Origin: Austropuccinia psidii
Lineage: Eukaryota > Basidiomycota > Pucciniomycetes > Pucciniales > Sphaerophragmiaceae
Assembly: GCA_023105745.1 (NCBI GenBank)
Contig: JALGQZ010000004.1
Location: 33,105,816-33,169,815, forward strand
Reading direction: 5' to 3'
Length of the DNA stretch: 64,000 bases
Shown one piece after another: positions 5,743 to 55,895 of the stretch. Every line of letters starts with the position of its first letter. The first letter of the stretch is position 1. The translations under genes were made by a program, and so were the position numbers. The notes under the pieces were generated by a model, which saw nothing but the letters and a program-made list of their open reading frames with translations, searched no databases and was not told where the DNA came from.

Positions 5743-6328
5743 GTATTCCCCCACCTTTAATGGTGAGTTCCTGATCACCAAACCAAGTTAAAGTCACTTT
5801 GTGGATGTTGAGAAGGATTGGATGCAGGGCTTACAGAGGTATTGCATCTTGAAAGGAATTTCATGACTGGTACAAGGTTGGCATATGACATGAGGATGAT
5901 TTGGTCTTCTTCTGACATGTGGCTTTGGAAGTTTTGAAGAAATGAGTTGACATAAAGATTTTGGCATTAAGGTTATAAGAAGTAAAATTCTGAAAACATA
6001 TAAAACAAAAAACAGAAAATAAGAAAAAGAAATAAAGAGAAATGAAATCTTGAGAGGAATTCCAAGCTTCATCATGGAAGTTCACAGCTGATTTGAATTG
6101 GCCAAGGACCTGGAAAACAAGATTTGATGCCAGGTTCTCACAGAGTAGCCAAGGTGATGTTGTTGAAAGATTGTAGAGCCCTCAGGGAAGTTCACACCAG
6201 GAGAGGAACTTAATTTTGGTAGTTACTACTCCCACCAGTGCCATAAAAACTAAACATCTCCTGAAGGAATGAATTTGAATTGAAGAAAACTTTGGTAATT
6301 ACTCTCCCCACCAAGCACCATAAAGCAA
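5743..6328 (-). other. 3' untranslated region and polypurine tract of gypsy-1
   Basis: Lies between the end of pol and the 3' LTR. On the - strand the LTR is preceded by AAAGGTGGGGGAATAC, a purine-rich priming tract. No ORF of interest, and no counterpart of the antisense ORF found at this place in gypsy-2. Confidence 0.6.
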
Positions 6329-7711: not shown

Positions 7712-7729
7712 TCCTTGAAGGATACTTCT

Positions 7730-9646: not shown

Positions 9647-9715
9647 TATGAGATCTTCTCCCTTGCAAGTATCAATTACTAAAAAGTCTTATTCAAAGCT
9701 TGGTAATGAAGCAAG

Positions 9716-9997
9716 CTAAACCATATATTTGGTATGGTGAGTCACAAATAAGGAACGGGACTCAGAGGAGTCCAACATGATAAGAGGAATCTTCTCTGGG
9801 AGTTCTGACATTGTCAAAGAATACTTGCGAACAAACTGCTTTGCAATAAATGAGTTGGTAGCACCAGAATCAATGAGAATACTGTAAAAAACATCAGAAA
9901 GAGAAGAAAAAACAAAGAATTTAAGAGAATTCTTGAGACCAGTATTCAGAATGCACAATTGTGCTCTGGATGGAAAACAGTGAAGACCATTGAACAC
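9716..9997 (-). pseudogene. Retroviral-type aspartic protease of gypsy-1
   Basis: The - strand ORF contains ILIDSGATNSFIAKQFV, the active-site motif of retropepsins (DSG), followed by a hydrophobic strand. It lies between gag and RT as expected. It is separated by stops from gag upstream and from the linker ORF downstream. Confidence 0.8.
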
Positions 9998-10011
9998 AAC
10001 ATGATCTTTAT

Positions 10012-11289
10012 TCAGGGTTTTCCCTGGCTGGGAAATTTGCCTGATGGTTGGGTAAGCTTGTTTTGAGGCCTTTTGAAACAGGACTCAAGACTATTCTTCC
10101 CACCACAAAAGGTACATAAACCCTCCTTTATTCTTCTTTCTTTTTCAGAATTCATCAACTTGAAGTCTTTATTCAACAAAGAAGAATGGGGCTTGTCCCT
10201 CTTCTGAAAATTCTTCTTCTTTTGATTTGAATTTGAAGAACTTTGAGGCTTCAGGCTTCTTCTCTTGATGAGGACTCTTCTCTTTTTGCCTCTCATGGTA
10301 CCTGGTATCAATCTCCAGGGTAATATCCATTAATTCTTGAAGGATGGGAGCCAAACTGATCCAAAATCTTGGATGGCAATCCCTTCCTGAAATGGTGGAT
10401 GAGAGCCCTTTCACCCCAATCCCCGATTCTTGAGACCAAACTTCTGAAATCAGAAATGTATAATGATACATGCCCACCTTCTTTCATCCTCAAAGCATCC
10501 AACTCTTCTTCATCTTTTCTAACTTAATTTGGGTCTCCAAATAAAGTGAAGATTTTGGGATTCAAATAATTGCCAATAATTGAGAAGATAATTTGGATCT
10601 TGATTGGTGAGATTGGACAGATAAGGCTAAATCCATTTTGCAGCCCTGCCAAGGAGAGATGAAGTGGCATAAAGGACCTTCTTTATGTCTTGAGAAAAGT
10701 TTGTCAGATCATTATAAAATATTAATTTTAAAGACTGAATAAAGCTCCTAACTTTGAAAGGCTGAGTCCCATCAAAGTATTCTGGTGCCTTCATAGATGG
10801 AGTCTTGAAGGCTGGTGGTCTTGATGATTCAGAAAGTGAATATTCTTGAAGATTAGCCATAATTTGAGTCATTTTCTGCATGATGGCAAATAAGGATGGT
10901 TCAGACTTATGAGAGACAGGCTGATTAGACTGGGTTATAGTTTGCCCTCCAGTACCTTGGGATTCCCCCACAGGAGCAGGGACACCTTCAGTACCATCAG
11001 ACTCTTCCTCTTCCACAGAATTTCCTCTTCCTGTTCACCATCTTCACCACAACCTTTGAAAGTGGTCCTTTAGAGTCCTTCAAATCTGCCAACTACTCCT
11101 GAAAATGAACTTGATCTTCTTGGCCCTCTTCCTTCTTTCCTGGATGGTGCTGCTCCTTCCATATGGGGCCCTCAATTGAGGAACTGCTGGGGTGCCATCA
11201 AGAGGAGCTCTTGGAGTTGGGATAAGAACAACTTAAGCTTTGGACTGAGATCTGGTCTGTCTTGCAGGAGGTGAATGTTGAACAGGCAT
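10012..11289 (-). pseudogene. gag of gypsy-1, frameshifted
   Basis: The likely ATG is at 11289-11287 (start MPVQHSPP). Parts then appear in 11016-10627 (acidic MEEEESDGTEG; FKTPSMKAPEYFDGTQPFKV; GRAAKWI), 10502-10308 (MKEGGHVSLYISDFRSLVSR) and 10477-10012 (ERALIHHFRKGLPSKIL; DTRYHERQKEK; zinc-knuckle region LCTFCGGKNSLESCFKRPQ). In the knuckle the His of the CCHC pattern is replaced (GGKN). Homologous to gypsy-2 gag at 50930-52268. Confidence 0.8.
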
Positions 11290-11978
11290 GACTTCAGGAA
11301 TAAAATTAAAATAAATGAGATAAGAATCAAAATTTTCTTGAAGTCAAATCAAAATCAAAATCAATGTCTTGAAGAAAAATCTATCAATCAAAATGTCAAA
11401 ATAAAATCTTCAAGTCAATGAATCAATATTTCAAATCAATCAAAATCAAAATCTTTTAGAATCAGTTAATCAAATGAATTCTTGTGGCAAAAATCAATTT
11501 TATGTCAAAATTCTTGATGTGAAAAAATCAGCAAAATTAAATGAAATCTTCAGGTCAATCAATTCTCTTGAAGTCAATATCAATTATGTCAACTTAATCA
11601 ATAAAATCAAATCAAGTGGGTTCTTCTTTAAAACTCAAAGTCTCTTGAAGAATTAATCAATATTAATCTTTATGTGAAGCATGTGTTTGAATAATTTGAT
11701 GAGCTATTTGAAAATCAAATTAAATTTCTTATTATGCCTGAATTATGAATGAAATAAAATTTTATGATTTGAGATAATATTTAAAAAGAGAAACAAGAAA
11801 TAAAATTGGGTCAGCTTGCAATTTTAAAAATGAAGAATGAATGAGAGAAAATTGAGAAGTGACAATAGATCATAAAGTTCATAAACATTAAAGAGTCATA
11901 ATTTTCATGAAATGAGTGAATGAAATTATAAAGAAATAATGAAAAGAATGAAAAGAAATTATGAGCTAATTAATATAA
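11290..11978 (-). other. Leader of gypsy-1
   Basis: About 690 bp between the 5' LTR and the gag start. It is dominated by repeated AATCAAAATCAA, TCTTGAAG and TCAATCAA words, a pattern also seen in the gypsy-2 leader. No gene. A primer-binding site next to the LTR could not be assigned. Confidence 0.6.
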
Positions 11979-13525
11979 TACCACAGGGGCTCTTGTGGAA
12001 ATCAAGAGTTTCCTGGCACTCAGGAATCAAGAACTCACTTGGAGGGCTCCAAAAGAATAAAGAAATAATAAGGAATATATCTCTTTAAGGAAGAATAAGA
12101 GTAAGGACAAGTATGCCAAAGATAAAAGAAAAGGGAATCAAGTGGCCAAGATAATAAAAAAAGCCAAAAGCCAAAGAGACAACCAAATGAATCCTCAATT
12201 CACTGTTTCAACCTGTCACAAAGAACAATGCAATTATTAAAGGATATGCCCATCAATATCCACTGATAGGCAAAGAAGAAAAGGTGCAAAAGACTTACTT
12301 AATATTATCAGTATTTACTTTGATTAATGAAAAGAAAATAAGGATAGAAATAAATCCAATATATTAATGAGCTGGGTAAAATGTCCCTAGGGAAGAAAAG
12401 GTGGCCAGTATATGTGAAAAGCTGAAGACTGATCTTGCAGGGTTGATCCCCAGCTGTATTGACTGTTTTGGGTCAATACAGATCTGGACATCTTGAGAAT
12501 TGAGCTATGTGATAGAATGCCCACAGTGGAATTTGAATTGGCTCAAAAGAGCCAAGGCCATACAGGTTGCCTGAATACAGCCTGTATGGACCAATTGAGT
12601 TGTCCAAGCCATACTGAAGTACTTGATGCCTTGACATCTGATTTAATGATTAGTAACCTCTTGAAGTTACCCTTGGAATAATCCTGGAAAGAAAATACAA
12701 CCCAACTCCTTCAGGGCCAGGTGGTTGGGGTCCTTGAATGGTCTTCTGGTAGCCGCCAGGGATTGCAAGACTGAATGACTGAAAAGACTTCCTTCAAAAT
12801 TGGTGATGTATTTGGAGACTTGAATTGGAATGTCATAATTTGGTCCTGAAAACATCACTATTGTATTTCTGAGCAAAATTGGTGGATAATAGTATATTAT
12901 ACCATATATTCACCATGCCTGAATCCTTGGTACAGAGTATATTGGTGAAAGAGAGTCCTTCCCCTGAATGGAGGGAAAAGCTTGCTGGACTTGATCTGGT
13001 GGCCTCTGGTGGTTGGCAGAGGCCAGGGGTTTAAAATGGCCAATACGTGGTTCTTGGCCATTTTTGGGAAGGTTGCAATTGGGGGCCCACTTGTGGTTTG
13101 GGACCCACCTGGCCTTGAGGGTTGGTGGTTGGCCTCATTGGATTTAGGCCAAAAGGGGCCATAGAGGGTGTAGGGGGCCTAAATGGCCCAAAAAGGCCAT
13201 TTAGGCCCTGGACCCCATAATCAAAGGGGTGGGGCCAAGGGGCCAGAAGCCCCTGGATGTCCAGATGAACCCCCAAGGCCCAAAACAAAGGTATTGGCCT
13301 GGGGGTTGGTGAGGTGGAGAATTTGCCAAAAAGGCCAATGGTTGCAGGATATGGCCTGAGGCCATAAGTGGCCAGTGAAAGGTAGTTTGGCCTAAAGGCC
13401 GCAAACACCAAAAATGGTCCAATTGGCCATAAAAACTAATGACATGACCACCTGGCCATAAAATGAGGTCAGGCTATATTTTCCACAAACACCCATTGGG
13501 GGATGGATTACACATGGTTGTGACA
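11979..13525 (-). repeat. 5' LTR of gypsy-1 (1547 bp)
   Basis: On the - strand it starts TGTCACAACC (plus-strand end at 13525) and ends near CCTGTGG at about 11979. The inner end shares CACAGGGGCTCTT with the gypsy-2 LTRs; the outer 400 bp match 5339-5742. It contains a GGCC-rich domain with a 14-bp perfect hairpin (13175-13208), a 10-bp inverted repeat CTGTATTGAC/GTCAATACAG near 12453-12481, and a CATACAGG/CCTGTATG pair near 12559-12590. The low end is mutated, so that boundary is good to a few bases. Confidence 0.85.
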
Positions 13526-14702
13526 GAAGGTTGTCTAGTATTCCTTAGTGATTTGAATTACCCAGTAGCTAATTTTAGTAGAAGTATAGTGATTTATTCC
13601 TACCCAGTAGCCAAGGTCAGTGTGGTAAAGCATTTTTCAAAAAGATTTAGATTGCATTTCAGTTTTCTTATCAACAGTTATAGTCTTATGACCTTGATAT
13701 TGGACTGGATTCAAAATATCAACTTAAACTCACCTTAACCTGATATAATCTTTACATTAGCTTTATCAAGAATTGAAACCTATAAAAAATAATTTATCAG
13801 AAACATATACAATTTTCTTTCTTTTCTTACCATACACTATTAAACTGTATCAAGAATTCATTCTCATCTTAAGATCTCTCTTATCACTTCCTGATCACCA
13901 GGTTATTAATATTTTTTGAATTAGTAGAAATTAATGGAGACACCCAAATTTAGTGTTTTGTATTTGTAAAACCACATGTTTAATTTTATCTTTATTTGTG
14001 GGTTCCAAGAAGCTTTGTTCAGTATATTAGGGGGGAAGCTAATAAATATTTTTCAAAATAGTTATTAGCATTTCAGAACTAGTCACCTGTGATTTCCACC
14101 TCCAGGTACTTCCTTCTTCAATCACACACCACTTGTTTCATGCTATTTAACAGCATTTCTGATTATAGACAGAGCAAAGACCAATTAAATTGTTCCATCA
14201 TAATTCAAAATGATTTAACTGTGTGTACATATCCTACATATATATTTTCATTTCAGTTTACAAAATGAAAGATCTTGTATAATAAGGTAATCTTTTTTTG
14301 GTTTGGTATTGGTTCCAAGATCTTTTCACAATAAAATATGCCTCCATGGGCTCTTTATATCTATTCCAACTTTAATTCTACCATGAATGATTATATTTTC
14401 TTAGTTGCCAATTTAGTCCCAGCTTTATTTTTTTGTCATCTCTTCCCCGGTATATCACTTCTTCTTTGAAATTCCTTGAAGTGTGGCCAAACTTTCTTCC
14501 AATATTGTTGATATTTGGGTGATTTTCTGTGTCATAGCTTTCCAATGATCTAGCAGTCCCTCACTTTTTGTTCTTCACATTCAATAGTGGTTATTTTTTA
14601 ATTTCAAAACTTCTTTTTGTGGTTATATCCTTTCCTTCATCTGGCCTTGCAGTGTATTTTTTTAGAAATACCTTTTTATGTTTTGGAGGAGCTGCAGCAT
14701 TG
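13526..14702. other. Unassigned AT-rich spacer
   Basis: About 1.2 kb between gypsy-1 and the solo LTR. No coding signal, RNA gene or repeat recognised. The first five bases (GAAGG) should be the right target duplication of gypsy-1. Confidence 0.5.
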
Positions 14703-16111
14703 GACAGTGTCAGCCTGTGACTCAAACCCAGAGCACAAGCATGACAGCCAAATACCATAAACCAATGGTAAAGCCAAGATACCACCAAAACATGGAGCTA
14801 AGCCAAATTACCTCAAAAGGTATCAAAAGAAAGAGGAAAATCACCTCTTTCCAAATATACAAATCCTACAATCATAGGACAAAGAATAACAAAGTTATTC
14901 CTCCTCAAAGCTATTGCTGAGCATAAACCTTAATTTTCACCTCTCATCCAAAATCCAGAGGAAGAGTCTTAACCCCATCAGATGGGTATTCAAATTAAAG
15001 CTCCAAGTCAGGGCTATCTAATGGTACTAGCCAAACTGAGCTAGCACCAAAATAAGGTCAAATAAGGGTGATTAAAATATTCACCTCTGATCTCACTTCT
15101 ACAGTTTTAGTGTGAGATACCTAAAGTGGGGTCTTTTTGGAAAGAGCACAATCAGGGCTATCTGATGGTGCCATTCATTTCCCCATATCCTATCTGGAAC
15201 AAAAGATATGGAGCAAACAAGTTTCATACAGTTTTTGGACAAATCATAAATATATACAAGAAAACTTGTACATGGCTTTACTTTGCCATATTTAATGATA
15301 ACCATACCAAATGAGGTACCATTGTGTAGATCACATCCAGGGCTACACAATGAACCAATTTTGAGCTCAATATCTTAAAACCTGACAAAGTTATAGCTGT
15401 TTTAAGGTTAAAATCCCACAGTTCAGCCAGTACAGCCTTACAGTGGGATACTATCTCATAAGTATGATTATGAGGTGTCAAACAGACAAAGAAGCTTGTT
15501 TATACTTCAATACCTCATAGTTAAGTCAAATACAGAGGTCTATACAGGTTCTGTACAGCTTTTGATGCATGAGAAGCACCAGAACACACCTGTAAACTCC
15601 ATTGGTGAAAATTTTCACCCTGTATAGTGTAAAATAACTACTTGTTGTTCTAAAACCACATTTCCACCCAATACTAGTCTGTATTGAGTGTGTAGAACCA
15701 CAAATTGGCCCACAGTAGTGAAAATTTTAACTCTGTGGTTGTGTGCAGAGGTAAACCACCTCCCACTACCCCAGAACAAGATAAAAGGAGGCTTTTCCTC
15801 CCCAGGAAGCTAATCCAGCATCCTGTTCTTGATATTCTTACATGGTATAACTTCTTAAAAGAAGTGGTACCCTGAGAATTCAACAGGTTATAATTACAAG
15901 TTCTAATTATTTTAGGGTTTGTTATTGTAAACCAACAGACAAACACTGTACCCAGGGCTATCAGCAGCACTCACCATCACTAAATTCATTTAGTATAGCC
16001 TTTTTTACCCTCTATTATCTTAATTATCATCTTTATTTTTGTGTCACACTCAGAGTTATAGCTTTTATTTGTCATTGTAGAGCTATATCATAGAGTCACC
16101 CTGACAGACAG
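14703..16111 (+). mobile_element. Solo LTR of element A with 5-bp target duplication
   Basis: The LTR spans 14708-16106 (1399 bp), starts TGTCAGCCTGTGACT and ends CACCCTGACA. It is flanked by GACAG at 14703-14707 and GACAG at 16107-16111. No internal region is present, so it is the product of LTR-LTR recombination. It aligns with 3946-5338 throughout with scattered substitutions and small indels. Confidence 0.93.
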
Positions 16112-39779: not shown

Positions 39780-40500
39780 CCCTCACTAACTTGGATCATA
39801 GTCTTGGTTCCTTTGAGTGCATATTGCTCTTGAGTGAGTGAAGGCTCAGCTCAGACAGGATTGAGAAATGGTGAATATTATGGGAGAAACTCCAACTTGA
39901 TTCCCTTTGAGGATTCAAGCATTGATTTTACTTCATCAAATTGCCATCCTTGATGGATGGGTGCATTATCCATAATTATTATTGAATCATTTTGAATTTT
40001 GAACTGAAAAGAAAGTAAGAATAATACAAATTCATCACTTCCAACACCTTTTGTCATCTGAACATTGGCATTGAGTATTTCTTGATAGACAAAACCCTCA
40101 TCTGAGATTGCTGCAATGAGTGTTATTTGCTCGACTTTTGGGACCAAGCTAAGAACAGAAGGTTTGCCTGCAGGAAAATTTGAGAAAAAAAATTGAAAAT
40201 ATAATAATAATAAAAATTATTCAAACAAACGTACCTGAGGGAAAGTAACCAAAATCTCTTCCTGAATGTAGATAAAAACCAGATTCATCCGTGAAAATCA
40301 CCTGCTGATCCAAGGCAAGCCCTTGATGGTTCACAAAGTTAGCATGCTGAGCCAATAGATCAGGCTAATTCCATGATTAATGTATATTTTTAACTTGCCT
40401 TCCTGTGCTTTCCATATCACAAAGATATTATTTTGTTTATTGACATGATATTTTTACTTTAAAGTTTTCTTCCAAGAACTCTTTCATTTACTTCAAGGTA
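39780..40500 (-). pseudogene. Tc1/mariner-type (DDE) transposase, broken, one intron
   Basis: On the - strand the first part (about 40500-40235) includes VIFTDESGFYLHSGRDFG, which carries the first catalytic Asp. A 67-bp intron (40168-40234; donor GTACGT, acceptor TGCAG) joins it in frame to KPSVLSLVPKVEQITLIAAI (ORF 40147-39878). This is followed by SIIIMDNAPIHQGW with the second Asp and, after a stop, YSPFLNPV, the conserved motif before the last acidic residue. Stops at the LPxYSP site and after NPV, plus a degraded N-terminus, make it non-functional. Terminal inverted repeats were not found. Confidence 0.75.
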
Positions 40501-43458: not shown

Positions 43459-43733
43459 ATGGAGGATTCTAGAGCTTCCAACAGCTCCAAAAGGCTAGCA
43501 AGAACCTTTGTAACTCTTCTTGAGAGTACTGAAGCTGACATAACCACTATTTGTGTTGCAAGATCTGAAAAACTTCCAGGATGTATCTGTAGAGATATAC
43601 CAGTAGCAGTACAAGAACTGGTTTATGTTGGCAAGGAAGAAGGAGTGGAAAGTTCTTCAAAGCTTATGGATTGGAGAAATGAACTATTACCTTCAGATGA
43701 AGAAGCTCTTTGGCCCAGAAAAGACACAGGTAC
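43459..43733 (+). pseudogene. gag of element B1, 5' part, cut by gypsy-2
   Basis: Starts MEDSRASNSSKRLARTF and runs open to ...PRKDTGT, where gypsy-2 begins. Its continuation resumes at 53803 after the duplicated GGTAC. The homologous B2 gag (61825 on) is uninterrupted at this point, which proves the insertion. The product is the N-terminal part of a gypsy-type gag; the role of this segment is not known to me. Confidence 0.85.
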
Positions 43734-44460
43734 TGACACAGGGGCTCTTCTAAGTGAAGAGGGCCTGGCACTCAGTAAACTGGGACTTACTCCTGGAGGG
43801 CTCAAGATATGGTAAAAGGAAAACACACTTAAGAGTGTAATAAGATGAAATTACTAGATAAAGAAATATAAGAAAGCAGAAACAAAATAATAAGAGTAAG
43901 AAATAAAAGAGCCAACCAAAAACAAGTCCAAGTCCACTGTTTCAACCTGTCAGAATGGAAAGAGAAGGGTTAATAAGGATATGGCCACCCAACTCATACT
44001 GTACAGGCAAAGAAAGAAAATGCAAAGACTAAATTAGAATTAAATAGATATAATAACCAAAATAAGGATAAGAATATTTAGAAAATGATAAATAAACTAA
44101 ATTAATTAACTGGGGAAAAGTCCCCAGGGGGGAGAAACAGGGGCTGGTATATGTGAGAATCACCAGCCCTTATCCAGACAGAGAATTTTCATGAGAATGA
44201 CTGATGGTTGAATTCAGTCTGGCCAATACAGGTCCTGTATGGATGTACAGAACCTATACAAGAGGTGTGGTGGTTTTGAGTGATCATACAGTTTCAGGAT
44301 GGTGTATCCAAACTGTACAGAAGTTGACAGGCTGTATGCATGTTCCAGCAAGGAAGATTGCTTAAACTGAATGCTGATGCACACAGTGGATTTTCTGGTT
44401 TTGAGGCATTTGAGTGGGTGTAAGTATGAATACCCTTACCCCTGGCTAGTGGTTGTTACA
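43734..44460 (-). repeat. 3' LTR of gypsy-2 (727 bp)
   Basis: - strand start TGTAACAACC (ends at 44460), - strand end CCTGTGTCA at 43734. It aligns with the LTR at 53038-53802 with a few percent substitutions by eye. It is 38 bp shorter owing to two deletions of 20 and 18 bp, each between CTGTA direct repeats. Contains TACAGGTCCTGTA near 44228. Confidence 0.92.
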
Positions 44461-45372
44461 GTATCCCCCTCTTGAAACTGGTGGGCTCCTGAACATCATA
44501 ATACCCTGCCACTGTTGAGTGGCATCTCAATCTCCCAACATTTTTTTCAAAAATATCTTTTTTAATTTATCTTTTACTCTTGGCAATTATACTGAAAATC
44601 CAATCTTCTCTTCTCTGTCATACTTGAATTAGTTTATCTTCCCCCCTTCTTTCATATTAAGTAAGTCCTTTTCCAGCTTTCAAAATGTTCTTTTTCTTTG
44701 ATTAAGTCAGTATCTTCTTTTCATTGCATGGCCCTGGGTTGTATCCCAAAAAGAATGCCATAGAGCTGTTCTGCTCAAAAAATGATGGCCAATGTGTATA
44801 TGAACATATACCAATTGTGGTTTGGCCAATTTGATGTTTTTATTCCCTTCTTGCCTTGAATGTAATTCTTGAAGCCTCAAATGAGGGGTCTTGTCCCCAT
44901 TATTCTTTAAAAATAGCACATAAATGGCCTTGGGGCCATTTTGGACCCTTCCAGTGATTCTGGGCCTTGGCCATCACCATGGCCAATTTTGGTGTATCTT
45001 GGTTCAAGGCCATTTTTGGCTATTTGGGACCCTTGTATGATTTTGGTTTCCTATGGTCTATGGGGGCTATTGGAGACACCCAGGGCCCAAATACGCTGGG
45101 GTTCCAGGGGGTCTATGGGACCAACCCTATGGCTTTTGGACCTACTTTTCACCACATGGCCTGGGCCCATTGTGAGGGTCCAGGTCCATCAAAACCCTGA
45201 CCTCCCCAAAGTTGAAGGGGAGGTCCTGGGTAGTGACTTCAATCCAGAGAACCAGGATATTTCATTTTTTGAGGATTTTGAGTGGGGGGGGCATAATTGA
45301 GCTATGGCCCACTCCCTTGATGAATTTCTTCAGGCATGAAGTGCAATATTCTGATGGCTTGACTTCTTCTTC
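44461..45372 (-). other. 3' region of gypsy-2: polypurine tract and GGCC-rich stretch
   Basis: The - strand has AAGAGGGGGATAC directly before the 3' LTR (polypurine tract). Beyond it, 44930-45230 is GGCC/GGGCCC-rich and resembles in composition the GGCC-rich part of the gypsy-1 LTR. Plus-strand ORFs here (44941-45300, 44967-45200) are probably by-products of that composition. Confidence 0.5.
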
Positions 45373-46509
45373 TTGCATAAATCTTTGGTCTTGAATTTCA
45401 AACTGACTGAATTCACTGAATCTTCTCCTTCTGCGCAGCCACCTTCTGTTATTTGTGGTTCTGGCATCCTCAGTTGTTTGGCTTTGCCTTGGTCAATGGC
45501 TTCTTCTGGCCACTTTGATCCTACCAAAACCTATGATGGTTATGAAGCAGCTCAAGTCATTGATCCTTCTTGTACCAAGTGTCTGGCCAAAGGAAACTAT
45601 TTTTTTCAACATCACAATCCAAGGTCTTCAAAGTGCCACTTTTGCTTTGTTGGGAAGAAGCCATGTTGCTGCTCTGGACCATTGCCTTCCAATGTCAGAA
45701 GATTTTTATGGAGAAAAAAGGATGGACCTTTTGGGAAGAAGCTCAAAGTTTCTGAGGTCCCTACTCCTGATGGTACTTCAGGGTATTCTAATTGTGAGTC
45801 TGGTAAATTCCTTTATTGAATTGAATGCTGAAATCTTGATATAGTGACTGGTTCTAGGAAAGGGTATGTGGCCAGGTGGACTAATGTTGGAGGGCCCATC
45901 CCAGTTGGTGGTAGGCCAATCTATTCCAGCTCAGAAATCACCATATCCAGGATCAATACTGAAGGTGTAGTGAAGAGAATAAGATGAATTGACAATTTCC
46001 CACCTGATCCTGATTCTGAAGTTAGTGATGAATTGGATGGTGAAGAAGTTGAGGTGGTTCATAATTCCATTGGCCATCAATCCAGTACTTCCCCTTCTCA
46101 TCCTCCTGCTTCCCTGAGTTTTTACACTGCCAGGACTGCCCTGATTCCAGAAGTAAAACCATCCCCCATAGTCACTTCTCAACAACTTCAACCTGTGGCC
46201 AGCTCCAGTAGAAGAAGACAAGAACTTTCCCCTTTGCCGTTTCCTGCCACCCAAGTCTTTCAACAAAGAGAGTGTTGGCCCATTGGGGTTACCAGAGAAG
46301 ACCCAAATACGGCAAGTGAAGATTAAGATGCTGTGGCCAAGTTGTTCAGAAGGGTTGATGGAAATAGTAGGGAGTTGATTGAGTATGCCAATTATGAGAC
46401 TATTCCTGGGACTTCCTGTGAGGAAATGGCTGCAAAATTTTCCTCCTATGAAGATGAACTAATCAATGATTTCCAGAAGAATTTTGATCATTTGGGTAGA
46501 AATAACTAG
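45373..46509 (+). pseudogene. Antisense cysteine-rich accessory ORF of gypsy-2, lightly broken
   Basis: Runs opposite to gag-pol, between the chromodomain end and the 3' LTR. Open from 45373 to 45819, then continues past a frameshift (VTGSRKGYVARWTNVGGPIP from about 45845) and through isolated stops (KRIR*, SED*) to TAG at 46509, about 370 codons. Features in order: TYDGYEAAQVIDP; a Cys cluster C-x2-C-x17-C-x2-C-x6-C (45571-45666) that looks like a zinc-binding module; NVRRFLWRKKDGPFGK; PTPDGTSGYSN; acidic DELDGEEVEVV; a Ser/Pro-rich stretch; VTSQQLQPVASSSRRRQ; an acidic C-terminus YEDELINDFQKNFDHLGR. I recall similar unnamed proteins in A. psidii but know no function. The low number of disruptions over 1.1 kb suggests past selection. 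Confidence 0.7.
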
Positions 46510-47279: not shown

Positions 47280-48545
47280 TTTGGGGCAGGCTTGTCAGGA
47301 TACAGTGAGTGGAAATATTTGACAAGGTCTGGTAAGCTGGTCCCCAAGTTGTTCTTTCTGGGTCTTCACTGAAACCTTTCCACTCTACAAGATACCATAA
47401 TTTACCTCTTTTGAGTTTTGAGTCCAGAACCTGAGCCACTTCCTATTCTTATTGCTCTTCCACTATGACTGGTGGTGGTTGAAATTGATGTCAATTTGGG
47501 ATAGTTGATTGCTTCACTGGTTCTAATAAGGACACATGAAAGAAAGGGTGAACTGACTTCCATTGTTGAGGAAACTTGAGGTAATGTGCATGGCTTCCCA
47601 CTTTCTTCAAGACCTTAAAGGGTCCCAACCATCTTTCTGAAAGCTTCTTGGTGGATCTTTTAGTCTTGATATTATTGGAAGCTAGCCATACCTTTTCCCC
47701 AGGTTTGAAGTCAGGTGGAATTGTCCTATTTCTATCTGCATAATTCTTGAATCTCCTTATTGCTGACTACAATTATTCTTTGACTACTTGATGTACTGAT
47801 TGGAGTTTTGTTGAAAACTTTCCAGAAGGCAAGTCTTGAGAAATATGGATTGAGTCAGAACTGGGATGTATTCCATAAATGATGAAAAAAGGTGATTGCT
47901 TTGTTGATGAGTGTTCTGCATTATTATAGGAAAATTCAGCCAGAGGGAGCCAGGTGGGCCAGTAATCTTGATGGTAACTGACATACATCCAAAGATAATC
48001 TTCTATAATCTGATTTACCCTCTCTGTCTGTCCATCTGTTTCAGGGTTAAAAGAAGTTGAAGGATCTCTTGATATCTTGAGCAGCTGACATAATTGAGTC
48101 CAAAATGATGAAAATAATAAAGATCCTCTATCACTAAAAATACTGGCTGGAAGACCATGTTTGGAAAAGACATGGTTAATGAAAATTTGAGCTAAGTCCA
48201 GGGCAGTGATTGTTCCATAAGTTGGAATGAGGATTGTCATTTTTGAGAACCTGTCCACAAATACTAAAATTGAATCAAAGTTGTTTGACAAGGGCAATTG
48301 AGTGATAAAGTCCATTGATAATGAATTCCAAGGACTCAATGGAATTTGAAGATTCTTGAGTAATCCAAGCTTCTTATGATTAATGCTCTTGTTTCTTTAA
48401 CATTGCTGACATGAGGACACATAGTCCTTAATGAATTGATTCATGAAAGCCCAATAAAGATCCCTCTTGATGAGCTTGAGGGTCTTCTCCTGGCCAGGAT
48501 AGCCAGCCAATGGTGAGTCATGACACTTTTGAAGAATATTCAGTT
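47280..48545 (-). pseudogene. Integrase and chromodomain of gypsy-2, broken
   Basis: The - strand zinc-binding region reads LQKCHDSPLAGYPGQEKTL ... SSCQQC followed by a stop; the second His is replaced by Tyr. The catalytic core (ORF 48339-47773) keeps all three acidic residues: LSMDFITQL, SDRGSLLF and TDGQTERVNQI. A stop at VVKE* ends it. Further on, about 47475-47285 encodes a chromodomain (EVAQVLDSKLKRGKLWYLVE, WKGFSEDPERTTW) with two upstream in-frame stops and a frameshift. Paralogous to 6329-7711. Confidence 0.85.
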
Positions 48546-48549
48546 GGAT

Positions 48550-48813
48550 TTATGCATTGCTTGGGATTACCACTCTATATTTTAATATAAATAATTTGGC
48601 TTGAGGTTCAAGAGAATAATCTGTAGCTAATTCACCTCTTGCTAGTTGTTTGAGTATTTCCTTGTAGTCTTTGTCTTTCCATACTTCTTTTTGAATTTGT
48701 TCAACTAAATCTGAGAATATTTCAACCTTGATTGAGAAGAATCTTGACTCTTTAATTCCATCTTGCTTTATTACTTGATGAACATTTTGAGGATTCTTAC
48801 TGATGAAGTCCAC
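48550..48813 (-). pseudogene. RNase H to integrase linker of gypsy-2
   Basis: ORF of 87 codons (DFISKNPQNVHQVIKQDGIK ...) corresponding to the gypsy-1 stretch ending ORF 8263-7730 (DLISKNPMNFQQLIKQDEVQ). It joins RNase H to the integrase zinc region and ends at a stop. Confidence 0.6.
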
Positions 48814-48837
48814 CCCCCTCTCTGGCTACATGTTGTC

Positions 48838-50278
48838 CTAATGTGACAAGGCATCTGGTAAAGTGGACAGCTGGCCTGGGCAGTAAGTGATAGTGAAATG
48901 AAACTCAGAAAGGAATTCAGCCCAATGGGCCTGATGACAAGTAAGAACTTTGGAAGACATGAAATACTGAAGAGAAGAGTGGTCTGTCAAGACCTCAAAA
49001 ACATTGGAAAGAGAAAGAAGAAAAGCTCTCCAGCGCTTGAGAGCCCAAAATATGTCAAGGAGTTTCTTGTCATAGATCTCATAGCTCAGCTCATCTGGTA
49101 GTAGCTTGTGACTATCAAATGCAATGGGATTCTTTCCTGAGTCATTCAACTGACTCAGTACAGCACCCAAGGCATAATCAGAGGCATTGGTTTCTACAAT
49201 AGTTGGTAGAGAAGGATTGAAATGAGAGAGGATAGGAGCAGTGGGGAAAGCTTCTTTGAGTATCTGAAACTGACTAAGAGTTTCCTCATTGAAGATAAAA
49301 GGGGAGTATTTTTCAAGGAGGGAAGTGAGAGCAGAGATTTTTTTAAAGTAATTTTTAATAAAATGATGATAAAAATTGGAAAAGCCAAGGAAAGATAGAA
49401 GGGCTTTGAGGTTCTTTGGCTGTGGCCAATTGAGGATTTGCTGAAATTTTGAAGAATCAATTTTGAGACCATCACTTGAGACAAAATAGCCCAAATATTC
49501 CACACTTGAGGCATGGAATACGCACTTTGAGGCTTTGGAAAACAAATTATTGTCCCTCAGTATTTGGAGGACAGAGGCCACATGTCTAAAATGTTCCTCC
49601 TCAGAGCTAGAGAAGACCATAATAGCATCTAAATAAACTAAAACAAAAATTTCCAAGAATTCTGCAAATATATCATTCACAAGATTCTGGAAAGAAGCAG
49701 AAGCATTGGTAAGGAAAAATGGCATAACTACCATATTTGGTTCTAAAGACAGTTAAGTGCTCACCCCCCTCTTTGATTCTAAGGAGATTATATGCACCCC
49801 GTAGATCTATCTTGGAGAAGATAGTGGAACCGTTCAATACGGTAAGGAGCTGGTTCATAGGAGGAACAGGATACCTGTTATTCCTAGTGAAAGCATTGAT
49901 TTTGCAGTAGTCAACACACAAAAAAAGGCCCCCATCCTTTTTCTTAACAAAAAGGACAGGTGCTACTGTAGAAGGGAAGCTTGGCCTTATGAAACCTTTG
50001 TCTAAATTCTCTGAAATGTAGGCCCACAGTGTTTCTGACTCTTGATTTGATAGTGAGTAGATAACACCAACTGGAGGTAGAAGACCCTCCAATTCAATAT
50101 GATGATCACAGGCATGGTGTGGAGGAAGTTTCTCAGCTTTCACCTTTGAGAATACATCCAAATATTGGTGATAAGCAGGAGGGACTACCTTCAGCACAGT
50201 TTCAATTTTCTCTGGATCTTCCTCCTCATCCCACTGCTCCTCCAGGGAGGCATGAACAGATAAAGGAGGAAGGTCCAT
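48838..50278 (-). pseudogene. Reverse transcriptase and RNase H of gypsy-2, broken
   Basis: ORF 50278-49673 carries the linker (LPPHHACDHHIELEG) and RT N-terminal motifs (FVKKKDGGLFLCVDYCKINA, FSKIDLRGAYN). After a frameshift, ORF 49734-48838 continues with TNASASFQNLVNDIF. The catalytic box reads YLDAIMVF, so the second Asp is lost. RNase H follows: VETNASDYALGAVLSQ has Asn for the catalytic Asp, and DKKLLDIFWALKRW has Lys for the catalytic Glu, while VLTDHSSLQYF is kept. Confidence 0.88.
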
Positions 50279-50356
50279 ATCCCCTTGAAAGAGATGAAGT
50301 AAAGATATAGCAACACCTTCTCCAACATATTTTATCTCTTTGAAGACTTCACCTCT

Positions 50357-50880
50357 TTATGGAAGTAATGACTGAGAGGGAATGATAGAAGGGATATGGA
50401 CAGAACGAGTAAGGGAAGGTGTCTTAAGCTCACCAACCAGAGAAACACTGTTGACAGAAGTGGCAAAGTAATTACTACTAGAAAATTTAGTACCACTAGA
50501 ATCCTTATGACCATAGTCATACATGATCAATCCATTTTTCCAATGAATAATGGGATTAAAATGGTAAAGAAAATCATAGCCCAATATTAGGCCTTCTACC
50601 TTGGGTAAATCTATGATAAAGAAATCCCATTCAAAGCTTGGGAATGAAGGAAAGTCAACTGCCCACTTGGTATAATGGGTGATGAACAGGGAAGGGGATT
50701 CATTTGAATTCAGAATGAAAAGAGGAATCTTTTCAGGGAGCTCCTAAACAGTCAATGAGTACTTCAGAACAAAATTCTTTGCAATAATAGATTTTGTAGC
50801 ACCAGAATCAATGAGAATACTATAAAAAATAAGAAATTTTTAGAGATTTCTTGACACTAGTATTCAGAGTGCACAATTGT
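50357..50880 (-). pseudogene. Aspartic protease region of gypsy-2
   Basis: The - strand shows FYSILIDSGATKSIIAKNFV with the DSG active site, then a stop (TV*ELPEKIPLF), then a hydrophobic C-terminal part GYDFLYHFNPIIHWKNGL (ORF 50584-50357). It lies between gag and RT as in gypsy-1. Confidence 0.75.
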
Positions 50881-50929: not shown

Positions 50930-52268
50930 TCAGGCTTTTCCCTGCTTGCTAGGGAAGCCTCTTGATAATCCAGGCCTGTTCTGGGGTCTCTTGAAGAATT
51001 TTTCAATTGGGTGTTTCCCCCCACAATAAGTACATAAGCCTTCTTTGATCCTACTCTCCTTTTCAGAACCAATTGGTTTATTGTCCTTATTGAGGAGAGC
51101 AGCATGAGGCTTGTCCTTTGTAGATTTAAATTTCTTTCCCTTCTTATTTGTCTTGTGGTGAGGCTTTTTTGAAGATGAGCCTTGATGAGGCCTTGAGGGA
51201 TTGGAACCAGGGACAGAAGGCTTCTTTTCCTGATTGCCATCCTTTTCCTTCTGCCTCTCATGGTACCCAGTATCTAGTTCCAAAGTGACATTCATGAGTT
51301 CTTGAAGAGTGTCAAAGGTTCCAGGGTGAGAAGCCAGCTGGTCTAATAATCTTGATGCCAATCCTCTTCTATAAACATTAATGTAAGCCCTTTCTCCCCA
51401 ATATCCAATTCTTGAAATTAAACTTCTGAAATCAGCAATGTACAAGGACACCTGTTGACTTTACTCCATCCTCAAATTGTCCCACTCTTGTTCAGCTTTC
51501 CTGACTCTATTGGGATCACCAAACAGAATGAATAATTGGGTTTAAAGTAACTTCCAATTATTGAGGAGGTAGGAAGGATCTTCATTGGAAATATTTAAAA
51601 GGTAGGGTTCAATCCATTTGCCAGGTCTACCAGTGAGAAAAGAAGTTGAGTAAAGAACTTTCTTCCCATCAGAGAAGAAATTTGCTGGATCATTGTGCAA
51701 AATCAATTGACAGGATTGAATGAATCCTCTCAATTTATGGGCTTGAGTACCATCAAAAGAATCAGATGCCTTCATTGATGGAGTCTTGAATGCAAGGGCT
51801 TTGGAATTGTCCCTGGGAGAAACTGCTTGAGTGAGTTGCCCCATTAATTGAGTCATCTGCTCCATCATCTTGAGGAAATTTTGTTCAGCTTGAGAGACAA
51901 GAGGTTGATTAGAATGGGCTAGATTTGCAGCTTCAGAAGCCTCAGGGGCACCTGCGAAGGCAGCTGCTGCTTCAGTTTCCTCAGATTCCTCCTCTTCCAC
52001 AGACTCCTCCCCCTAATCCACCTCTAGGCCCTTGAGAATTTCTTGGATAACCACCCAAAAAGCCAGAGAATGATCTTTATCTTCTTGACTTCACACATCC
52101 TCTTCTGGAGGGTGCTGCTCCTTCCATTGGTGGTCCTCTGTCCAAATTTTCACTCAGTTGATTAACTGATGGTGTGCAGTCAAGAGGAGCCCTTGCTGTA
52201 GGAGTGAGAAAAGCCTGATGTTTTTGAGATCTTGTATTCTTGGCCGGGGGGCTATGCTGAACTGGTAT
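50930..52268 (-). pseudogene. gag of gypsy-2, start codon lost
   Basis: The position equal to the gypsy-1 gag ATG (11289) reads ATA here (52268-52266), then PVQHSPPAKNTRSQ. Segments follow in shifted frames: GPPMEGAAPSRRG, ORF 52000-51542 (MEEEESEETEAAAA; FLKMMEQMTQLMGQL; SFDGTQAHKLRGFIQSC; TGRPGKWIEPYL) and ORF 51451-50930 (SLYIADFRSLISRIGYWGER; DTGYHERQKEKDG; basic KKPHHKTNKKGKKFKS; knuckle LCTYCGGKHPIEKFFKRPQ). The last Cys of the knuckle is Phe. Confidence 0.82.
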
Positions 52269-53037
52269 TACAAAAGAGTAAGAAAAGAACCTGATGGTAC
52301 TTGAAGCTAAGGAATAAAAAGCTTGGCCAAATCAATATCAACAAAACTCTTGATGAATCTTGAGGGATAAATCAAAGTATTGAGGTGAAATCAAATCCAA
52401 TCAATCAAATAACTCAGTCAATATCAAAGTCAATTTCAAATCAAATATCAATAAACCTTGAAGAATTCAACAATCAATAGTCAATCAATGTCTCAATTAA
52501 AAACGCAATGTCTTGAGGAATCAATCAATTAATTAATATCTTCAGGAATCAGCTCAATATCTTGATGAATAAAGTCAATCAACAATAAAATCAATTATTG
52601 AGGATAATCAGTGTCTTGAGGAGGTCAAATCAGTCAATCAATCCAATAAAACAGAATCCTGAATTGCTTAATCAATAACCAAAATAAACCCCAATCAATT
52701 CAATCCAACAGAAGCCTGAATTTCTGAATCAATAACCAAAATAAACTCAAATAAATCAACCAATCAATTAAAATTCCTAATAAGACCTGAATATGAAAAC
52801 AAAAAGGAAATTTTGATTTGATAAGAAGATTGAGAATGAAATTGAGATGGTAAGCAATGATTGAGAAATGAGAAGAATAAATTTTCCATTTGAATGAAAT
52901 AAATGAGATGAAAATTGATGAGACAAAAGTCATAGTCATGAAAAATCATAAGATCATGAAAGAGTCATAATTTGAAGAATGAGAGAAATGAAGTTAAATG
53001 AATGAAAAAAGAAGCAAATATGAGTTAATAAATCTAA
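52269..53037 (-). other. Leader of gypsy-2
   Basis: About 770 bp rich in TCAATCAA, AATCAAT and TTGAGGA words, like the gypsy-1 leader. No gene. No standard primer-binding site was recognised next to the LTR. Confidence 0.6.
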
Positions 53038-53802
53038 TGTCACAGGGGCTCTTCTAAGTGAAGAGGGCCTGGCACTCAGTAAACTGGGACTTACTTCTGG
53101 AGGGCTCAAGATATGGTAAAAGGAAAACACACTTAAGAGTGTAATAAGATGAAATTACTAGAGAAAGAAATATGAGAAAGCAGAAACAAAATAATAAGAG
53201 TAAGAAATAAAAGATCCAACCACAAACAAGTCCAAGTCCACTTTTTCAACCTGTCAGAATGGAAAGAGAAGGGTTAATAAGGATATAGCCACACAGCTCA
53301 TACTGTACAGGCAAAGAAAGAAAATGAAAAGACTAACATGAAATTGAATAAATATAATACCCAAAATAAGGATAAGAATATTCATAAGATGATAAATAAA
53401 CTGAATTAATTAACTGGGGAAAAGTCCCCAGGGGTGAGAAGGAGGGGCTGGTATATGTGAGAATCACCAGCCCTGATTCAGACAGAGAATTTTCATGAGA
53501 ATGACTGATAGTTGAATTGAGTCTGGCAAATACAGGTCCTGTATGGCTGTACAGAACCTGTACAGGAGGTGTGGTGGTCTTGAGTGATAATACAGTTTCA
53601 GGATGGTGTATCCAAACTGTATTGGGTAATTCCAACCTGTACAGAGGTTGACAGGCTGTATTGATAAACCAGACTGTATGCATGTTTCAGCAAAGGAAAT
53701 TGCTGAAACTGAATGCTGATACACACAGTGGATTCGCTTGTTTTGAGGTGTTTGAGTGGGTGTAAGTATGAATACCCTTACCCCTGGATAGTGGTTGTTA
53801 CA
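53038..53802 (-). repeat. 5' LTR of gypsy-2 (765 bp)
   Basis: Plus-strand ends TGTCACAGGGG and GGTTGTTACA. It pairs with 43734-44460. It has dense TACAG-type palindromes: TACAGGTCCTGTA near 53532, TACAGAACCTGTA near 53551, and further CTGTATTG and CTGTACAG words. The 38 extra bases relative to the other LTR sit between CTGTA repeats. Confidence 0.93.
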
Positions 53803-55895
53803 GGTACTTCTAAAAGGATTGACTCCAATTTCTTGAAAAGGGAAAGTCCAAATGGCGAAGGATTGGTCAAAAAACCAAAGCATGTTATCAGAGGATGATA
53901 GGAAGGAGTTGGCCCAAAAGGAAGACAAAACCCCTCTGGGAGCTCCCCAAGCCTCCACAAGTTTCAAAAAAGACAACAAAGCCCCAAAGACCAACCAGAA
54001 GGGCAAGCAAAAGGCAAACGAAAAGGGAAAGTCTAAATGCAACAAGCCTTATCCCCAGAACCACAGAATTACAAAGAAATAAATGACAGCCATGGAACAT
54101 GTGTTCAATATGGCAAAAACCTTGATGAAATTTAAAAGAAAGGAGGAGGAAAGAATGAATAAATCCTTTCCAAATAATTATATTTTCAAAAGCTTGTATC
54201 TTACTTTTAAGCTTTTCATGAAGAAATTTTAAAAAAGCTTAACAATTTTGAGTATATCCAACAGAAAATGGGTAGAGAAATTTTATAAGTGAAAGAATCA
54301 CAAAAGAGTGTTATGAGTCTGGACAATGTAAGTGAAGAAAATATTTTGTCTTTTAACAGAATTTTTGGAAGGACAGAACTCAAAGTAACATTTCTTAATC
54401 AGCCAGGTGAAAATTCTATTTATTTTATTACTAAAAAATCAAAAGAATTAAGGATACAAATTTGTAAGCTGGAAAATTCAAACAATCACAATGAAGCTCT
54501 TTTCCAAGAACAATTGGAAAAAAAGTGATAAATCAAGAATTGAGTTTAAAGAGCATATTAAATCAAGTATTAACAATATCTCATTGAAAAATGAATTACC
54601 AAGATAGTCTACACAAATTCTAGAATGAAATGTGTTTAACTTGAATAATAATGATTTACATCATTATAAAATTTAAATTGATTCCAAGGTGGAAACTGCC
54701 TGTAACTTTGAAAAAATTCCAAAATTAGAAGGATGGCCTACCTTCAGTGGTGAAGCAGAATATACACATATGGAATTTTTGAAAATAATTGATATTTTTA
54801 TAGAAGACTTTAACAAACCAGATGGATAAATAAGTTCCAGGTTACACTCATTATTTTCCAGATCAGTCAAGAAATTGTATTATCAAATGAGACAAGACCA
54901 TTGTAAACACTCCTGGGTTTGGTGGAAAGAACAAATTACTCCCAAATGGGATAATGATTATTGGAAATTAAAAATAGAAAATTATTTTAAAAAAGTGATT
55001 TTAAATATTGAGAGGAACAGGCCCATTTCCTGGTAGCTTAAGAAGAAAGACATATTAATTTCCCTCCATCCTGATATGTCTTAAACAAGGGTACATAAAA
55101 GGATATCAAGAAAATGTGGTGGCAAACTTGAGAATTCTATAAGAAGGAGACATATTGAGCAATTATCTACAGAAGATTATATCAATTCCATGGAAGACAT
55201 CAATACCAGAACAAAAATTGGTAGAGATTATTATAAGCCCCAATAGACAATAAGACTAGCAGGAAACCAATATAAAAAGAAAGACAAAATAAAACACAAG
55301 ACAGACCTCCATTGAAATGTCATAAATGTGGAAGTACATCTCATTTGACCAATACCTTTCCTAATAAAATATAAATTAATGAGATAGAGCTTGAAAGGAC
55401 TCAAGAAGCAAAGGAAAGAAATGAAGTTAAGGTAAAAGAAAGTGATTCTGAACCTTCTGAAGAAGAAGGATTACCAGATGAAGTTAGTATAGAAAACATC
55501 GATGTGTCCTTTGAGGTCACAGAGGTGCATTCTCAGTTATAACAATATAGTGAAGAATGTATGGATCTCATAAATCTTCAAGATGCCAAGATGCAGAAAA
55601 GAAAACCTGCAAGAGGTAAAGGCTATAAAGGTGGATCATCTTGTATAACTAATATTGTGATAAGAAACAAGGAAGCCAAGATACATATTAACTCAGGTGT
55701 GCTTTGTACTTGTGTTGGTAAAATTCCTTTTGATCAAAATTATACAAATTGGAAAGAGAAATTGATACCAATTAAAGGTTTAAAGTCATTAGTGCTAGCC
55801 AAGATATGAGCCATTTGGAAATTTTTGAGGAAGCAATAATATTTCCTCATCCTACAGGGAGTATCAAACTGAAATTTGAATTTTTTGTTATAAAA
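53803..55895 (+). pseudogene. gag and protease of element B1, 3' part
   Basis: Continues the gag cut at 43733. Visible parts: basic linker KGKQKANEKGKSKCNKP; coiled-coil-like ORF 54289-54528 (QSVMSLDNV... QEQLEKK); capsid core WPTFSGEAEYTHMEFLKIID with LHSLFSRSVKKLYYQMRQDH; zinc knuckle CHKCGSTSHLTNTFPNK with Phe for the last Cys; acidic SEPSEEEGLPDEVSIENID; and ORF 55561-55809 with the protease AKIHINSGVLCTCVGK, where the catalytic DSG is NSG. Coding similarity stops near 55895, where the sequence switches to the B2 leader. Confidence 0.8.

What the first reader, a model, noticed from the sequence alone, without database searches (positions are those of the whole stretch)
45373..46509. Antisense cysteine-rich ORF between pol and the 3' LTR of a fungal chromovirus
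gypsy-2 carries, on the strand opposite to gag-pol, an ORF of about 370 codons with a C-x2-C-x17-C-x2-C-x6-C cluster, conserved-looking blocks (DGPFGK, TPDGTSGYSN, QLQPVASSSRRR) and an acidic C-terminus. Only one frameshift and a few stops interrupt it, fewer than in the sense pol genes nearby, so it seems to have been maintained. Antisense extra ORFs are known in some plant Ty3/gypsy lineages (Tat group), but I know of no described function for one in rust chromoviruses. gypsy-1 lacks it, so it may be a captured or lineage-specific gene, perhaps regulating the element, host silencing or sense/antisense expression.
Basis: partly seen in the sequence, partly recalled or inferred. Interest (0 to 1): 0.78.

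Follow-up and report, generated by a model that had tools for sequence, protein, structure and literature searches.

The report
Spliced antisense gene in rust retrotransposon
An abundant jumping element in the myrtle rust fungus carries, on its opposite strand, an extra gene with its own intron and a cysteine cluster that has been kept under selection; it looks like a protein with which the element regulates itself, but its function is untested.

Summary
The antisense ORF is real and is a gene. The window is Austropuccinia psidii. A Ty3/gypsy chromovirus carries, between pol and the 3' LTR and on the opposite strand, a two-exon gene: 45391-45793, a 51-nt GT-AG intron, and 45845-46509. The window copy is dead (start codon lost, two stops, one of six cluster cysteines replaced), but 3 of 34 copies examined are uninterrupted. 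Pairwise dN/dS is 0.31 in frame, against 1.12 and 1.17 in the other two frames. In 19 of 20 other loci the end of pol lies antisense downstream. A second subfamily, 33-37% identical, keeps 11 of 12 cluster cysteines and the intron position. The spacing C-x2-C-x6-C-x10-C-x2-C-x6-C fits the (recalled) Zn2Cys6 consensus, but Pfam does not confirm it and AlphaFold is inconclusive. All 103 relatives of 343 aa or more are A. psidii.

Best reading: a spliced, element-encoded zinc-cluster protein regulating its own element (activation or anti-silencing). Binding and expression are untested. Antisense accessory ORFs are known in plants and in Botrytis Boty (brtn), so this is a new variant of a known kind.

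The parts
45391..45793 (+). aORF exon 1 (start codon lost in this copy; ATG in 31 of 34 copies)
   Evidence: Alignment of 34 copies; exon-1 dN/dS 0.25 against 1.22 and 0.96 in the other two frames
45571..45666 (+). Zinc-cluster-like cysteine block (family spacing C-x2-C-x6-C-x10-C-x2-C-x6-C; third Cys replaced here)
   Evidence: Read; family spacing
45794..45844 (+). 51-nt GT-AG intron on the antisense strand
   Evidence: GT in 33, AG in 30, both in 29 of 34 copies; donor hexamer pairwise identity 0.96, interior 0.75; annotated relatives are joined here
45845..46509 (+). aORF exon 2 (two in-frame stops in this copy), ending in TAG
   Evidence: dN/dS 0.34 against 1.06 and 1.31
44462..45390 (.). 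Noncoding stretch between 3' LTR and aORF start, with clustered ATGGCC/GGCCAT hexamers; candidate cis region
   Evidence: 9 sites in this copy; mean 5.55 against 0.89 expected per 920 nt in 11 copies; no frame-specific selection
43731..44461 (-). 3' LTR (BLAST limits; the CA end read from sequence lies about 3 nt inside)
   Evidence: LTR pair of 769 aligned columns, 88.7% identical; TG..CA ends and 5-bp target duplication GTACC read
53035..53803 (-). 5' LTR (BLAST limits, likewise)
50933..52012 (-). gag pieces (interrupted)
   Evidence: ORFs; same order in related loci
47491..50743 (-). pol pieces: protease, RT/RNase H, integrase with GPF-like end (interrupted)
   Evidence: domain names recognised from memory, no Pfam scan of pol was run
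47320..47460 (-). Chromodomain at the 3' end of pol (approximate limits)
   Evidence: WYLVEWKG context in the translation; recognised from memory

Best explanation
The element carries its own antisense gene. It is transcribed from the 3' side of the element by RNA polymerase II (inferred), loses a short spliceosomal intron (inferred from conserved splice sites) and encodes a protein of about 384-391 residues with an N-terminal six-cysteine zinc-cluster-like block, a mid-protein acidic patch, a long disordered middle and a C-terminal helical hairpin. Because the intron faces against the genomic RNA, it survives retrotransposition. Most likely the protein acts in the nucleus as a DNA-binding regulator of its own element, raising its transcription or countering its silencing through the noncoding region or LTR. 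Shown here: the gene, its intron, purifying selection, its fixed place in the element and its repetition (150 matches scored of 4797 candidates). Inferred: antisense expression, zinc and DNA binding, nuclear action and the sign of the effect.
For: Frame-specific purifying selection: pairwise dN/dS 0.31 against 1.12 and 1.17 in the other frames (34 copies, 561 non-independent pairs); ML omega 0.46, against 1.61 and 1.42 in the other frames; fixing omega at 1 costs 141 log units. RT in 13 copies gives 0.54. Selection starts at the ATG: noncoding DNA upstream gives 0.62-1.14 in all frames. Donor hexamer 0.96 identical and a CTGAY branch-like motif kept, while the intron interior drifts like third codon positions, 0.75. 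Uninterrupted copies: 3 of 34. In 19 of 20 other loci the end of pol lies antisense downstream. In two second-subfamily proteins at 37-39% aligned identity, 11 of 12 cluster cysteines are kept while all 5 other cysteines of the reference are replaced in both. The spacing occurs in 0 of 40000 shuffles of each of two proteins (the pattern was chosen after seeing them). The only PDB chain at E<=10 for the zinc-region profile is the LAC9 Zn2Cys6 domain, E=0.22, not significant. ATGGCC is clustered in the noncoding region. The genome methylates its younger TE families most (PMC12774611 passages), so such a regulator would have something to act against.
Against: No expression or binding data were available. 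Pfam Zn_clus (PF00172) appears for 1 of 23 scanned proteins or pieces, P0266, at 7.5 bits against a cutoff of 21; the other two listings (Pep_deformylase in P0129, HTH_69 in P0267) are also below cutoff. The LAC9 match covers only half of the cluster, twice over, and a PDB search with the whole protein gives two unrelated, non-significant chains. AlphaFold gives pLDDT about 35-46 over the zinc region in the full-length model and a mean of 52 for the exon-1 piece alone, whose strands do not look like Zn2Cys6. The cluster cysteines are only 68-83% conserved among 81 annotated near-full-length proteins, no more than the average position, and 19 of the 81 have all six. CGG/CCG pairs with 2-14 nt spacing are nearly absent from the noncoding region (4 and 5 of 34 copies for the two orientations). 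The ATGGCC sites are mostly inherited and the hexamer was picked as the most enriched one; the related TGGCCA is enriched in every part but gag, pol included, so the enrichment is not confined to a regulatory region.
Confidence: 0.5

Rival explanations
1. The product is an RNA-binding or particle accessory protein, for example for nuclear export, packaging or nuclear import of the element, and not a transcriptional regulator.
For: Other element accessory proteins act this way: Cer1 CERV is needed for export of genomic RNA (title in the listing, PMC10309623), and retroviral Rev is raised as a parallel for aORFs (PMC7264820 passages). The modelled C-terminal helical hairpin would suit oligomerisation.
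Against: The cysteine spacing fits the recalled DNA-binding Zn2Cys6 consensus and not a CCHC knuckle; the element already seems to have a degenerate knuckle in gag.
Confidence: 0.2
2. The product restrains the element (copy-number control or repression of the sense promoter).
For: An antisense position allows feedback; the encoded layout (cluster, acid patch, hairpin) fits a repressor as well as an activator.
Against: The two subfamilies have 4797 and 7912 first-look candidates in the genome, which does not suggest strong restraint but cannot exclude it.
Confidence: 0.13
3. Antisense transcription itself is the function (dsRNA or siRNA source or sink), and the protein is incidental.
For: Antisense TE transcripts are proposed to act this way (PMC7264820 passages).
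Against: Purifying selection on the amino-acid sequence, absent from other frames and from upstream noncoding DNA, and the cysteines kept across subfamilies, require a protein.
Confidence: 0.05
4. A captured host gene carried as a passenger without a role for the element.
For: A spliceosomal intron in the gene would fit capture of a genomic copy; the sister element gypsy-1 lacks it.
Against: A passenger would lose its reading frame. Mean pairwise dS of 0.446 greatly exceeds post-insertion LTR divergence of about 0.07 (7 loci), so selection acted over many rounds of transposition. No relative outside A. psidii was listed, and the one IMG/VR scan found none.
Confidence: 0.04

Closest known systems
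brtn of Boty-like Ty3/gypsy elements (Botrytis cinerea, Sclerotinia sclerotiorum; Zhao et al. 2011, not read, known through PMC7264820, PMC8365987 and PMC4227169 passages)
   Same: Fungal gypsy element with a chromodomain; one extra antisense gene between pol and 3' LTR; function unknown
   Different: Ascomycete host.
aORF-3R of plant Retand, Grande (gene23), RIRE2 and PvRetro13 elements (PMC11963269, PMC7264820 passages)
   Same: Antisense gene between pol and 3' LTR, kept in most copies; nuclear or DNA-binding role suspected
   Different: Retand elements are not chromoviruses, and their proteins carry the TRP28 domain (PF04195), which none of our scans hit; a search of the main text of PMC11963269 for 'intron' found no occurrence
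Zn2Cys6 (Gal4-type) fungal DNA-binding domain, PF00172
   Same: Spacing of six cysteines (consensus recalled); an acidic patch elsewhere in the protein
   Different: Below the Pfam cutoff; the fold is not confirmed; no fungal transcription-factor domain was hit in our scans
VANC anti-silencing proteins of Arabidopsis VANDAL transposons (PMC10398659 passages)
   Same: If the best reading holds: an element-encoded protein acting on short motifs clustered in the element's own noncoding region in a methylating genome
   Different: VANDALs are DNA transposons (recalled); no sequence relation was tested; here neither binding nor loss of methylation was tested

Membership tests
Antisense accessory ORF (aORF-3R) of LTR retrotransposons | Lies between pol and 3' LTR on the strand opposite gag-pol | tested here: met
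   Window; antisense to the end of pol in 19 of 20 further loci, L038 being the exception
Antisense accessory ORF (aORF-3R) of LTR retrotransposons | Sequence conservation comparable to other genes of the element | tested here: met
   omega 0.46 for the aORF (34 copies), 0.54 for an RT piece (13 copies, not the same set)
Antisense accessory ORF (aORF-3R) of LTR retrotransposons | Present in most copies of the family | tested here: inconclusive
   All 20 fetched loci were chosen by the aORF itself, so the share of elements lacking it is unknown
Retand TRP28 proteins | PF04195 domain | tested here: not met
   No PF04195 in the 23 proteins or pieces scanned
brtn (Boty) | Sequence homology to BRTN | not tested
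Ty3/gypsy chromovirus | gag-PR-RT-RH-INT order plus C-terminal chromodomain, LTRs with TG..CA | tested here: met
   (domains recognised from memory)
Zn2Cys6 (PF00172) | Six Cys with consensus spacing (consensus recalled) | tested here: met
   70 of 267 collected proteins; the window copy has five of the six
Zn2Cys6 (PF00172) | Score above Pfam gathering cutoff | tested here: not met
   Best 7.5 bits against 21; so not filed as a member
Zn2Cys6 (PF00172) | Binuclear cluster fold | tested here: inconclusive
   Low-confidence models
VANC-type anti-silencing factor | Binding motif clustered in the element's own noncoding DNA | tested here: inconclusive
   ATGGCC enriched about sixfold, but chosen after the fact and binding unknown
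VANC-type anti-silencing factor | Loss of methylation in trans on own copies | not testable with these tools
   Needs methylation data

The most novel reading that the evidence does not exclude
A fungal LTR retrotransposon encodes, antisense and spliced, a sequence-specific zinc-cluster factor that binds motifs in its own noncoding region and protects its copies from the host's cytosine methylation, a convergent counterpart of plant VANC, and this helped it to inflate a gigabase rust genome.
Probability: 0.18. Interest if true: 0.87.

Novelty: new variant of a known kind. Interest (0 to 1): 0.6.

Why it matters
Antisense accessory genes of LTR retrotransposons have long been described without a known function (PMC7264820 passages). 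Here is one in a basidiomycete chromovirus, in high copy number, with clear selection on the protein, two divergent subfamilies, a conserved cysteine cluster and an intron whose persistence shows how an intron-bearing gene can ride on an RNA-copied element. TE methylation of this species has been measured in print (PMC12774611 passages), so a self-regulation or anti-silencing role could be tested from data that may already exist.

Tried and rejected
Rejected: frameshift (it is an intron); a sense-strand env-like ORF (at least 6 stops in every opposite frame of all 34 copies; the opposite frame with dN/dS 0.41 mirrors the gene's third codon positions); an N-terminal extension as in some annotated models (26 of 267 proteins by a pattern; no frame-specific selection upstream); CGGCCG as the undeaminated ancestor of the GGCC sites (left flank C in 5 of 550 cases); CGG/CCG pairs. 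Led nowhere: Pfam, PDB by sequence, an IMG/VR scan with one protein, both AlphaFold models for the zinc region, second-subfamily copies in DNA already held (none), and locating pol beside the second subfamily by coordinates (one search lists 150 of 50,742 candidates, too few; compared by eye only). No Foldseek search was run, because the models are poor. Ten paper searches were answered; in the rows listed, none describes this gene. That is not proof of absence from print: only the top rows were seen and most subscription papers are not held. The paper search one search failed on syntax.

Full report
WHAT IT IS. The window lies in a 1.015-Gb genome. All listed database relatives are hypothetical proteins of Austropuccinia psidii MF-1 (best 120 of 276, best 120 of 693, all 103), so the source is taken to be A. 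psidii, the myrtle rust. On the minus strand a Ty3/gypsy element runs from its 5' LTR (53035-53803) through gag and pol pieces to its 3' LTR (43731-44461). The LTRs are 88.7% identical over 769 aligned columns, begin TG, end CA (about 3 nt inside the BLAST limits), and are flanked by the 5-bp repeat GTACC. A chromodomain ends pol. On the plus strand, between pol and the 3' LTR, lies the antisense ORF.

GENE MODEL. Aligning 34 copies (L001-L030 and L047-L050; the window copy is L001) gives exon 1 at 45391-45793, an intron at 45794-45844 and exon 2 at 45845-46509. ATG is present in 31 of 34 copies, GT in 33, AG in 30, and both in 29. The donor hexamer has mean pairwise identity 0.96. The intron interior has 0.75, the same as third codon positions (0.75), while first and second positions have 0.87. 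The last five intron bases average only 0.76, because one of them varies freely, although A and G themselves are at 0.89 and 0.88. A CTGAY-like branch motif is kept. Annotated relatives are joined at this point. The window copy is in frame without any frameshift, but it lacks the start codon and has stops at codons 182 and 295. Three of 34 copies (L012, L047, L049) have an uninterrupted spliced frame of 385-392 codons including the stop; two of these three have all six cluster cysteines. The other 31 are broken. The 34 copies are the 30 best exon-1 matches plus four lower ones, so they lean towards copies like the window's.

SELECTION. Pairwise dN/dS (34 copies, 561 pairs that are not independent) is 0.31 in frame, 1.12 and 1.17 in the other two frames; exon 1 gives 0.25 and exon 2 gives 0.34. 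It falls from 0.39 among the closest quarter of pairs to 0.29 among the most distant, as expected if copies decay after insertion. On the opposite strand the frames give 1.06, 0.41 and 1.22; the 0.41 frame shares its degenerate positions with the gene, and every opposite frame of every copy has at least 6 stops. Upstream of the ATG all frames give 0.62-1.14, so the coding region starts at the ATG. A codon model on the tree gives omega 0.46, against 1.61 and 1.42 in the other frames; fixing omega at 1 (kappa held) lowers lnL from -13367.4 to -13508.7. The two wrong frames also depart from 1, upwards (48 and 22 log units), so the baseline of this test is not exactly 1. An RT piece in 13 loci gives 0.54. 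Partial LTR pairs could be read in 7 of 21 loci (window included) and differ by 0.028-0.104, mean 0.072. If about 0.07 of the pairwise divergence is neutral decay after insertion, omega while the lineages were replicating is roughly (0.137-0.072)/(0.446-0.072), about 0.17; this is an estimate, not a fit.

PLACE AND NUMBER. In 20 of 20 fetched 10-kb loci both exons were found, and in 19 of 20 the end of pol lies antisense about 1 kb downstream; L038 is the exception. Several of these elements are truncated further into pol, for example L031, L034, L035 and L048. The loci were chosen by exon-1 matches, so they do not tell how many elements lack the gene. The genome search had 4797 first-look candidates, of which 150 were scored, all matching. 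Gypsy-1 in the window, with 69% identity in its best integrase piece, lacks the gene. With a length floor of 343 aa all 103 database hits could be listed, and 103 of 103 are A. psidii. The search needs shared 5-residue words, so distant relatives in other rusts are not excluded.

SECOND SUBFAMILY. P0265 and P0266 share about 33-37% identity with P0121. Their subfamily has 7912 first-look candidates in the genome, 116 of them scored, with 298 matches; some rows have no stop in the match and open frames of over 450 codons. P0265, read through an unspliced stretch, places its intron at the same residue, and in 18 exon pairs that I picked the gap between the two matches is 18-57 nt, 45-57 nt in 12 of 18. 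Whether this subfamily also sits in a gypsy element could not be read.

THE PROTEIN. The family spacing is C-x2-C-x6-C-x10-C-x2-C-x6-C; 70 of 267 collected proteins keep it complete. Between the reference P0121 and the two second-subfamily proteins, 11 of 12 cluster cysteines are kept while all 5 other cysteines of P0121 are replaced in both. Shuffling P0121 or P0266 never gave the pattern in 40000 tries each, a test made after the pattern was seen. Against this, among 81 annotated near-full-length members each cluster cysteine is kept in only 68-83%, about the average of all positions, and 19 of 81 have all six; I take many of these to be decayed copies. Pfam Zn_clus is not reached (best 7.5 bits against 21, in 1 of 23 proteins or pieces scanned). 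A profile of the region (ten sequences chosen for having all six cysteines) finds one PDB chain at E<=10, the Zn2Cys6 domain of LAC9, at E=0.22, matched by one half-cluster twice over: suggestive, not significant. A PDB search with the whole of P0121 gave only two unrelated, non-significant chains. AlphaFold models only the C-terminal helical hairpin with confidence (helices 326-352 and 360-384, ten-residue means 65-87); the zinc region is unresolved in both runs. I therefore call it Zn2Cys6-like by spacing and do not file it as a member.

CANDIDATE TARGET. The 0.9-kb noncoding stretch between 3' LTR and ATG has 9 ATGGCC/GGCCAT sites in the window copy and a mean of 5.55 against 0.89 expected in 11 of the 21 loci (those with a complete set of matches). 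Gag and pol show no excess of this hexamer and the 5' leader has none at all; the LTR (0.82 against 0.23), the aORF (1.18 against 0.65) and the aORF-pol spacer (0.91 against 0.30) show a small one. The related TGGCCA is enriched in every part except gag, pol included (2.82 against 0.87), so the signal is not confined to the noncoding region. The hexamer was picked as the most enriched one, and sites are largely shared by descent. This is a lead only.

HOW IT PROBABLY WORKS. An antisense RNA, spliced by the host, yields a nuclear zinc-cluster protein. The sense RNA copied by reverse transcriptase never presents the intron as an intron, so the intron persists. An acidic patch, a disordered middle and a helical hairpin fit a DNA-bound regulator. 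A. psidii methylates its younger TE families most (PMC12774611 passages), so activation or anti-silencing is the likeliest benefit. Restraint of the element and an RNA role remain open.

KNOWN PARALLELS. [quoted passage not shown] passages seen) and in one fungal lineage, Boty (brtn; cited in PMC7264820, PMC8365987 and PMC4227169, passages seen; Zhao 2011 itself not read). VANC proteins show that a transposon can encode a sequence-specific anti-silencing factor (PMC10398659 passages). In four papers on A. psidii or rust TEs (PMC8063080, PMC12210899, PMC10886601, PMC12774611) the word 'antisense' does not occur in the main text; I saw passages of them, not the whole texts.

Noticed in passing
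window, about 4000-15960: A second gypsy element (gypsy-1) with the same gene order, protein pieces 41-75% identical to gypsy-2 and no antisense gene.
   Followed up: partly
G000, coordinates: Second aORF subfamily; more than ten rows with practically the same score and identity suggest a young burst, whose carrier element could not be read.
   Followed up: partly
G000, coordinates: A divergent gypsy lineage with many rows of open frames of 1262 codons around an RT/RNase H query, and 50,742 first-look candidates; it looks recently active.
   Followed up: no
window 39878-40216 (-): Open piece with a DDE-transposase-like stretch (IIIMDNAPIHQGW), probably a DNA transposon remnant (recognised from memory).
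   Followed up: no
window 804-1646: Five successive copies of a 161-nt unit at a spacing of 167-172 nt.
   Followed up: no
database proteins, e.g. P0126, P0133, P0207: Some gene models of this family (26 of 267 by a pattern) carry N-terminal extensions from the noncoding region; the selection test suggests these are annotation artefacts.
   Followed up: yes
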